Notes under the pieces: model-generated
What the model saw: the letters and a program-made list of their open reading frames with translations, nothing else
Databases searched by the model: none
Told to the model about the DNA's origin: nothing
Part shown: positions 50,227-50,465 of the stretch, one piece after another
How the letters are laid out: every line of letters begins with the position of its first letter
How positions within the stretch are numbered: position 1 is the stretch's first letter
Translations under genes and position numbers: made by a program
From: a virus
Length of the DNA stretch: 64,000 nt
IMG/VR virus record: IMGVR_UViG_3300025121_000027
Coordinates: 43,006-107,005 of that record
Strand: one strand, 5' to 3'

Positions 50227-50465
50227 GTTTGCATGGCTGCCAGGATTCGAACCTGGACAACCGATTTGCGTAGCTTCTGCCCTACGCTCGTACGCTGCTG
50301 CGCGAGTAAATCCTCGATTGATCCGCACAGTTCGTCAGCAGATCCTTCTCGGCCAAAGTGCGGTGCGTTTCCGTGGGTTATTCAGCGTCATTTTGGAAGA
50401 TTGTTCATGCAATCTTTTGTCTACCCAAATGTCCTTTCGCCAACTTTCCGCCACAGCCAGCAAAC
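50227..50465 (-). ncRNA. 239-nt structured RNA with tRNA-like T arm
   Basis: Minus strand, GC-rich for this genome. Ends pair as GTTTGC-TGGCTG (50454-50465) with CAGCCA-T-GCAAAC (50227-50239), one bulge. A canonical T arm CCAGG-TTCGAAT-CCTGG (50240-50256) precedes the 3' strand, and a Leu/Ser-tRNA-like TGGCGGAAAGTTGGC follows the 5' strand. Between them are more strong stems: GCGTAG/CTACGC, CGAG/CTCG, CCGCAC/GTGCGG, CTGCTG/CAGCAG and AAGATT/AATCTT (some exclude each other). It follows a promoter and a boxA-like box. Not recognised as tmRNA, RNase P RNA or a group I intron. A novel tRNA-like structured RNA is the best description. Confidence 0.6.

What the first reader, a model, noticed from the sequence alone, without database searches (positions are those of the whole stretch)
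50227..50465. 239-nt structured RNA with tRNA-like ends
A 12-bp bulged end stem, a perfect T arm and a Leu/Ser-like D-arm start surround about 170 bases of further stems. It has its own promoter and boxA-like box, is GC-rich in an AT-rich genome and holds no convincing ORF. It does not fit tmRNA (no tag ORF, no conserved 5' core), RNase P RNA or group I intron cores as far as I can see.
Basis: partly seen in the sequence, partly recalled or inferred. Interest (0 to 1): 0.72.

Follow-up and report, generated by a model that had tools for sequence, protein, structure and literature searches.

The report
tRNA-ended RNA beside phage Ro60 locus
A bacterial-virus genome carries a 239-base RNA gene with tRNA-like ends at the head of a cluster of Y-RNA/tRNA hybrid RNAs next to a Ro60-like gene; the hybrid cluster is well supported, while the middle of the 239-base RNA remains unexplained.

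Summary
The element is on the minus strand of a phage record (107 kb). Its ends hold up: a perfect T arm flanked by a bulged 12-bp stem (5 of 2000 shuffles as good). The "further stems" do not: the interior folds no better than shuffles (81 of 500 as good). Rfam and ARAGORN give no class. I found no homologue except a 100%-identical copy of the same phage, with an N gap inside the element.

The setting is the better find. On the same strand, between the element and a true Ro60-fold gene (AlphaFold/Foldseek), lie four Y-RNA-like modules: a two-helix stem with ACAYG and RACTY motifs, capped by a tRNA-like domain, a circularly permuted tRNA-like domain or a short loop. The same modules precede Ro60-like genes in three other phage contigs (11 modules; shuffles about 0.3). 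A jumbo phage has Y modules inserted inside tRNA genes. The element lacks the Y motif but shares the array's leader.

Best reading: a tRNA-mimic-ended noncoding RNA of a phage Ro60/Y-RNA locus. Main rival: a Leu-type tRNA interrupted by an insert. Function is inferred, not shown.

The parts
50227..50465 (-). 239-nt RNA element with tRNA-like ends (the finding)
50240..50256 (-). T arm CCAGG-TTCGAAT-CCTGG of the element
50227..50239 (-). 3' strand of the bulged 12-bp end stem (CAGCCA-U-GCAAAC)
   Evidence: duplex -17.5 kcal/mol, 5 of 2000 shuffles as good
50454..50465 (-). 5' strand of the end stem (GUUUGC-UGGCUG)
50446..50453 (-). UGGCGGAA, Leu-type D-arm start at the U8 position; no closing D-stem seen
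   Evidence: sequence
50506..50514 (-). -10-like box TATTATAAT upstream of the element; no -35 by the scan
   Evidence: sequence
50468..50481 (-). leader TCTTTGAAAATTAA (boxA-like) directly before the element
50148..50161 (-). second copy of the same leader, before the first Y-RNA/tRNA unit
50019..50148 (-). Y module 1 (stem + ACACG / GACTT), capped by a tRNA-Met(CAU)-like domain 50048-50124
   Evidence: (z -3.98)
49938..50006 (-). Y module 2, capped by a short hairpin loop
   Evidence: (z -2.26)
49785..49924 (-). Y module 3, capped by a circularly permuted tRNA-like domain (T arm 49875-49891, acceptor closed by UUCG, then D and anticodon arms, anticodon-like CUA)
   Evidence: (RF00005 26.1 bits, 49810-49863); the plain fold of 49790-49930 alone gives z -1.32
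49647..49772 (-). Y module 4, capped by a tRNA-Gly(UCC)-like domain with a short acceptor (49680-49746)
   Evidence: (z -2.52)
49560..49634 (-). tRNA-Pro(TGG), ordinary
49240..49317 (-). tRNA-Arg(TCT), ordinary
47639..49105 (-). Ro60-like (TROVE/vWA) protein gene
46983..47099 (-). second insert-bearing tRNA-like gene, 117 nt, acceptor CCGCAUU/AAUGCGG; reads as Phe(GAA) with about 43 nt between D and anticodon arms (my reading)

Best explanation
The element is a noncoding RNA gene, read from the minus strand, of a phage Ro60/Y-RNA locus. Shown: its two ends can form an acceptor-like stem plus T arm; it follows a leader copy shared with the neighbouring Y-RNA/tRNA array; that array lies directly upstream of a Ro60-fold protein gene. 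Inferred: the acceptor/T-arm end lets tRNA-handling enzymes (RNase P, T-loop modification enzymes) process and stabilise the RNA, as known for YrlA and tmRNA. Inferred, weaker: the long middle is a payload domain that takes the place of the D and anticodon arms, as a Y module does in a sister phage (L018:8846-8938), so that the RNA acts within or alongside the phage Ro60 particle, for example as client, tether or decoy for tRNA-cutting or tRNA-degrading enzymes of the host. The element has no Ro60-binding Y motif of its own.
For: End stem and T arm beyond chance. Same leader before the element and before the Y array, and TCTTTGAAAA also before the arrays of L007 and L020. Four Y modules in the window, 11 over four phages, against 0-2 per shuffled set; the two helices vary on both sides at 12 of 12 pairs (full pairing is by selection). 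Ro60 fold: Foldseek 9kop 6e-12, Thermus phage phiLo Ro60 9l5y 7.1e-10, human Ro60 1.5e-8, D. radiodurans Rsr 5.1e-8. Long tRNA-ended genes are enriched in these sequences: 7 found, 0.4 expected. A tRNA-ended RNA that encloses a Y module lies upstream of Ro60 in L018 (z -4.17).
Against: The interior shows no fold signal (z -0.99; -0.94 constrained). No Y motif in the element. No homologue in any Ro60 phage fetched, so neither conservation nor covariation supports it. No -35 promoter box. No expression data.
Confidence: 0.5

Rival explanations
1. A Leu-type (or other) phage tRNA gene interrupted by an insert or intron of about 150 nt, possibly a degenerate or unrecognised self-splicing intron; after removal it would be, or once was, an ordinary tRNA.
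For: UGGCGGAA at U8 is Leu-like (recalled). Insert-bearing tRNA genes are common near these Ro60 genes, including 46983-47099 in this phage. The gapped-pattern scan found 8 other loci of the same layout among the 24 of 25 scored: L040, L042, L044, L045, L050, L051, L055 (one family, acceptor A-U to G-C swap in two of them) and L058 (7 of 7 acceptor pairs). One 5-bp split anticodon stem AUUUG/CAAAU is placed almost canonically.
Against: No Rfam intron hit at E up to 10. No 5-bp/7-nt U33 anticodon arm, though that criterion also missed 2 of 3 control tRNAs. The split stem is at chance level (about 0.6 expected, my estimate from 598 placements). No CCA is encoded. The inserts of L040 and L058 are unrelated in sequence to the element's (z -0.88 and 0.19).
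Confidence: 0.3
2. A decayed or incidental sequence: a tRNA-end remnant (for example an attachment-site fragment or pseudogene) next to unrelated GC-rich DNA, without function as an RNA.
For: Interior without fold signal; no homologues; GC unlike the genome.
Against: The pairing end stem over 239 nt (5 of 2000 shuffles) and the duplicated leader just upstream are not expected of debris. The same sequence is in a second record of the phage, identical where both have sequence.
Confidence: 0.17
3. A tmRNA-like or other known large RNA with tRNA-like ends.
For: tRNA-like ends and size only.
Against: ARAGORN finds no tmRNA; no Rfam match on the element at E up to 10.
Confidence: 0.03

Closest known systems
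YrlA, bacterial Y RNA (Rfam RF02553), partner of Rsr/Ro60
   Same: The neighbouring array: end stem with a conserved internal-loop motif, tRNA-like domain on top (permuted with a capped acceptor in module 3), Ro60-like gene adjacent.
   Different: No window module reaches the Rfam cutoff (21.5 and 15.3 bits against 69). Modules 1 and 4 carry an unpermuted tRNA-like domain. The element itself has no Y stem.
Phage Ro60 (TROVE), e.g. Thermus phage phiLo (PDB 9l5y, 9kop) and jumbo-phage TROVE proteins (PMC7824862, passage read)
   Same: Fold of the adjacent protein.
   Different: About 16% identity over the Foldseek alignments to 9kop and 9l5y; not recognised by Pfam for the window protein.
Phage tRNA genes with inserts (L040 and L058 types; L002 tRNAs with inserted Y modules)
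   Same: Acceptor and T arm around extra RNA; UGGCGGAAAG in L040 and L058.
   Different: Inserts unrelated in sequence; L002 inserts are Y modules, the element's is not.
tmRNA
   Same: Long RNA with tRNA-like ends.
   Different: No ARAGORN or Rfam match.

Membership tests
YrlA / Y RNA (the element) | Ro60-binding stem with the conserved internal-loop motif | tested here: not met
   scan finds no external or inserted module in 50227-50465
YrlA / Y RNA (the element) | Match to RF02553 | tested here: not met
   the window's YrlA hits lie at 50068-50169 and 49694-49790, outside the element
Y RNA (array 49647-50148) | Stem of two helices with a conserved internal loop, formed by the RNA ends | tested here: met
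Y RNA (array 49647-50148) | tRNA-like domain | tested here: met
   for modules 1, 3 and 4; module 2 has only a short loop
Y RNA (array 49647-50148) | Genomic neighbour of a Ro60-fold protein | tested here: met
Y RNA (array 49647-50148) | RF02553 at gathering score | tested here: not met
   21.5 and 15.3 bits against 69; best relative L007 13410-13527, 45 bits
Y RNA (array 49647-50148) | Binds Ro60 | not testable with these tools
   needs a binding assay
tRNA with intron (the element) | Acceptor stem and T arm in canonical register | tested here: met
   6 of 7 acceptor pairs, then U8 G9
tRNA with intron (the element) | D arm and anticodon arm recoverable | tested here: inconclusive
   none found, but the criterion also missed 2 of 3 control anticodon arms
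tRNA with intron (the element) | Recognisable intron (group I or II) | tested here: not met
   Rfam at E up to 10
tmRNA (the element) | tRNA-like domain plus tag reading frame recognised by ARAGORN or Rfam | tested here: not met

The most novel reading that the evidence does not exclude
Phages with their own Ro60 build an array of RNAs in which Y-RNA stems and tRNA modules are recombined freely: tRNA on a Y stem, permuted tRNA on a Y stem, a Y module inside a tRNA, a Y module between tRNA ends. The 239-nt element is a further type, with tRNA ends around a large non-Y domain, made to work with the phage Ro60 particle against host tRNA-cutting or RNA-decay machinery.
Probability: 0.25. Interest if true: 0.75.

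Novelty: new variant of a known kind. Interest (0 to 1): 0.52.

Why it matters
The function of bacterial Ro60/Y-RNA particles is largely open. Phages that carry a Ro60 with whole arrays of Y/tRNA hybrids, in several permutations, offer natural variants that show which parts matter and suggest a role in the phage-host conflict over tRNAs. The 239-nt element would add an RNA class with tRNA ends if it proves to be expressed; if it proves to be an interrupted tRNA, it is ordinary and only the array remains of interest.

Tried and rejected
Homologues of the element: blastn against phages (28 records, the 20 listed show pieces of 6-7% of the query) and plasmids (48 records, chance-size pieces); exact 30-mer and 19-mer in viral contigs (none); the genome search at E up to 10 in the own record and five viral records (besides the own record only T-arm-size matches in two records) and, with the longer stretch 49200-50520, in four more records (one tRNA match in LR756511); the MAG genome (the identical contig plus two 20-23-nt pieces); 379 genomes of the MAG's phylum (31 of 379 at E up to 0.01; besides the MAG these are short pieces, mostly the T arm). 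blastn/nhmmer on the loci then held: none outside the phage itself except T-arm-size pieces. The full records of L018 and L020 were not searched, only the 21-kb loci.

Coding: six typed peptides from the reading frames, no Pfam hit at E up to 10.

Y module hidden in the element: not found, external or inserted. Cloverleaf skeleton: 53 of 400 shuffles show it too. Relationship to L040/L058-type genes: interiors align no better than shuffled; searches for these two in phages found nothing, in plasmids 2 records for L040 (Lactococcus, Enterococcus). I read a short group I core into L040 by eye; Rfam did not report it.

WWE3 host: the identical contig is binned in a WWE3 MAG, but bins often hold foreign phage contigs; the Ro60 profile finds nothing in the other 378 genomes of that phylum sample. 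I make no host claim.

Papers: PMC4201824 and PMC10870794 (the primary YrlA paper and a Ro60 review) are not held, so statements on YrlA rest on passages of PMC8394870, PMC7790460, PMC4030889 and PMC7824862. I found no paper in the held library on Y modules in phage tRNA genes or on permuted tRNAs in phages near Ro60 (searches; listings only, except the passages named).

Full report
Observation. The element reads on the minus strand. Its 3' end is a perfect T arm followed by CAGCCA-U-GCAAAC, which pairs with the 5' end GUUUGC-UGGCUG; 5 of 2000 shuffles of the 305 nt upstream give as good a duplex. UGGCGGAA follows directly, in the register of U8-G9 and the start of a Leu-type D arm (type recalled, not from a call). 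GC is 0.519; of 6377 sampled windows of that size 1.7% are as GC-rich. These points stand.

What does not stand is the claim of a structured interior. The whole element folds at z -1.83 on its own strand and -2.37 on the opposite strand. The 197-nt interior alone gives z -0.99, with 81 of 500 shuffles as stable. With the ends forced, a cloverleaf-like skeleton appears (-78.5 against -78.7 kcal/mol unconstrained), but 53 of 400 shuffled interiors show the same two arms. MFE statistics are weak for long RNAs, so this is absence of support, not proof of absence.

Class. Rfam at gathering and at E up to 10 reports tRNAs around the element but nothing on it; ARAGORN reports no tRNA or tmRNA there. 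A canonical anticodon arm or D arm was not found, but the same criterion missed 2 of 3 control tRNAs' anticodon arms, so an interrupted tRNA remains possible.

Setting. The window is the right end of a 107,005-base viral record; it has a portal protein, a tail sheath, a tape measure and a baseplate hub; the sheath's relatives among phages include Mu-like ones. Downstream on the minus strand lies a gene whose product gives no Pfam hit and a partial PHROG match to an RNA-binding protein (E 1.5e-10). A profile of five relatives hits Ro60, TROVE and Rsr structures (9.2e-7 to 0.0016). A model at mean pLDDT 87.5 matches in Foldseek the TROVE structure 9kop, the Thermus phage phiLo Ro60, human Ro60, the Ro autoantigen 1yvp and D. 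radiodurans Rsr. It is a Ro60-fold protein.

Y array. Between the element and this gene lie repeated units: outer helix, internal loop, second helix, ACAYG, a cap, second helix, RACTY, outer helix. Caps in the window are a tRNA-Met-like domain, a short loop, a circularly permuted tRNA-like domain with a UUCG-closed acceptor, and a tRNA-Gly-like domain with a short acceptor. A mechanical scan over 12 sequences on both strands found 15 modules; 11 of them lie directly upstream of the Ro60-like gene, in the window, L007, L018 and L020; the other four (two in L002, two in L009) look like chance. Ten shuffled sets gave 0,0,0,2,0,1,0,0,0,0. On the 11 modules all 12 pairs vary on both sides; the 100% pairing is by selection. 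Relatives were found with (5 of 32 candidate stretches; 3 of 92; 3 of 36, no new locus).

Hybrids elsewhere. In the jumbo phage LR756511 the same module, with the anchor ACAAAC, occurs 5 times in the outer form and 7 times in an inserted, hairpin-capped form, all in the 4.2 kb upstream of its Ro60-like gene, 0 in ten shuffles. Some insertions sit inside tRNA genes, for instance an Arg(UCG)-like tRNA at L002:5947-6070 (z -4.07). In L018 an acceptor stem and T arm enclose a Y module in place of the D and anticodon arms (8846-8938, z -4.17), and a permuted tRNA sits on a Y stem (9735-9882, z -3.40). In L007 the first unit after the leader is a 217-nt Y stem with a permuted tRNA and an extra domain (z -2.76). 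The L018 inserted module was read by eye; the inserted-form scan with the ACAYG anchor found 0 in the window, L007, L018, L020 and L021-L023, so that scan is not sensitive and its negative for the element is limited.

Where the element fits. No Y motif was found in it. It shares the leader TCTTTGAAAATTAA and the upstream region with the first Y unit, and TCTTTGAAAA also stands before the arrays of L007 and L020 (that 10-mer also occurs at other places in those loci). It is one of 7 long tRNA-ended genes found in 254 kb of these sequences, against 0.4 in shuffles; two of those 7, L002:6611 and L007:15217, also contain an ordinary tRNA parse and may be false. So it looks like a member of a locus that builds RNAs from tRNA parts, with an unidentified middle.

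Homologues. None was found apart from a contig of a WWE3-binned MAG that is 100% identical over the 15.8 kb compared and has a run of N inside the element. A gapped pattern for the D-start and T arm found 25 loci; of 24 scored, 7 form one family with a similar layout, two of the 7 with an A-U to G-C swap in the acceptor (my reading; the pairing is shifted by one base from the scripted register), and L058 has 7 of 7 acceptor pairs. Their interiors are unrelated to the element's. They show that tRNA-ended genes with about 150 nt of extra sequence occur in other mobile elements, which helps the interrupted-tRNA rival.

Mechanism. Bacterial YrlA binds Rsr by its stem and is treated by tRNA-modifying enzymes through its tRNA-like part; with PNPase it forms a structured-RNA degrading machine (PMC8394870, passages). 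An alternative offered in print is that the tRNA-like part inhibits an anticodon nuclease (PMC7790460, passages). By analogy the phage array would load Ro60 with tRNA mimics. For the element only the ends allow an inference: processing and protection by tRNA-handling enzymes. What the middle does is not known.

Verdict. Partly confirmed. New variant of a known kind; the array is better supported than the element.

Noticed in passing
window 49647-50148 (-); L007 7643-7955; L018 9739-9878; L020 9598-9965: Array of Y-RNA-like modules capped by tRNA-like, permuted tRNA-like or short-loop domains directly upstream of a Ro60-like gene in four phage contigs.
   Followed up: yes
L002 3794-7252 (LR756511 jumbo phage): Twelve Y modules near a Ro60-like gene, seven in an inserted hairpin-capped form, some inside tRNA genes.
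   Followed up: partly
L018 8846-8938: RNA with acceptor stem and T arm that enclose a Y module in place of the D and anticodon arms.
   Followed up: partly
L007 7424-7640: Permuted tRNA with encoded CCA and an extra GC-rich domain between the acceptor halves, on a Y stem.
   Followed up: partly
window 46983-47099 (-): tRNA-like gene, reads as Phe(GAA), with about 43 nt between D and anticodon arms; no Y motif seen.
   Followed up: partly
L040 10827-11031 and six relatives; L058 13342-13568: Leu-type tRNA-like genes with about 150-nt inserts, not recognised by Rfam; L040 may be a short group I intron.
   Followed up: partly
L008 5830-6950: Repeated stems ending GAAACGCGCGG with tRNA-like caps upstream of a Ro60-like gene; they did not pass the module scan used here.
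   Followed up: no
L024 6658-6698: Run of N inside the element in the otherwise identical MAG contig MEWG01000024.1.
   Followed up: partly
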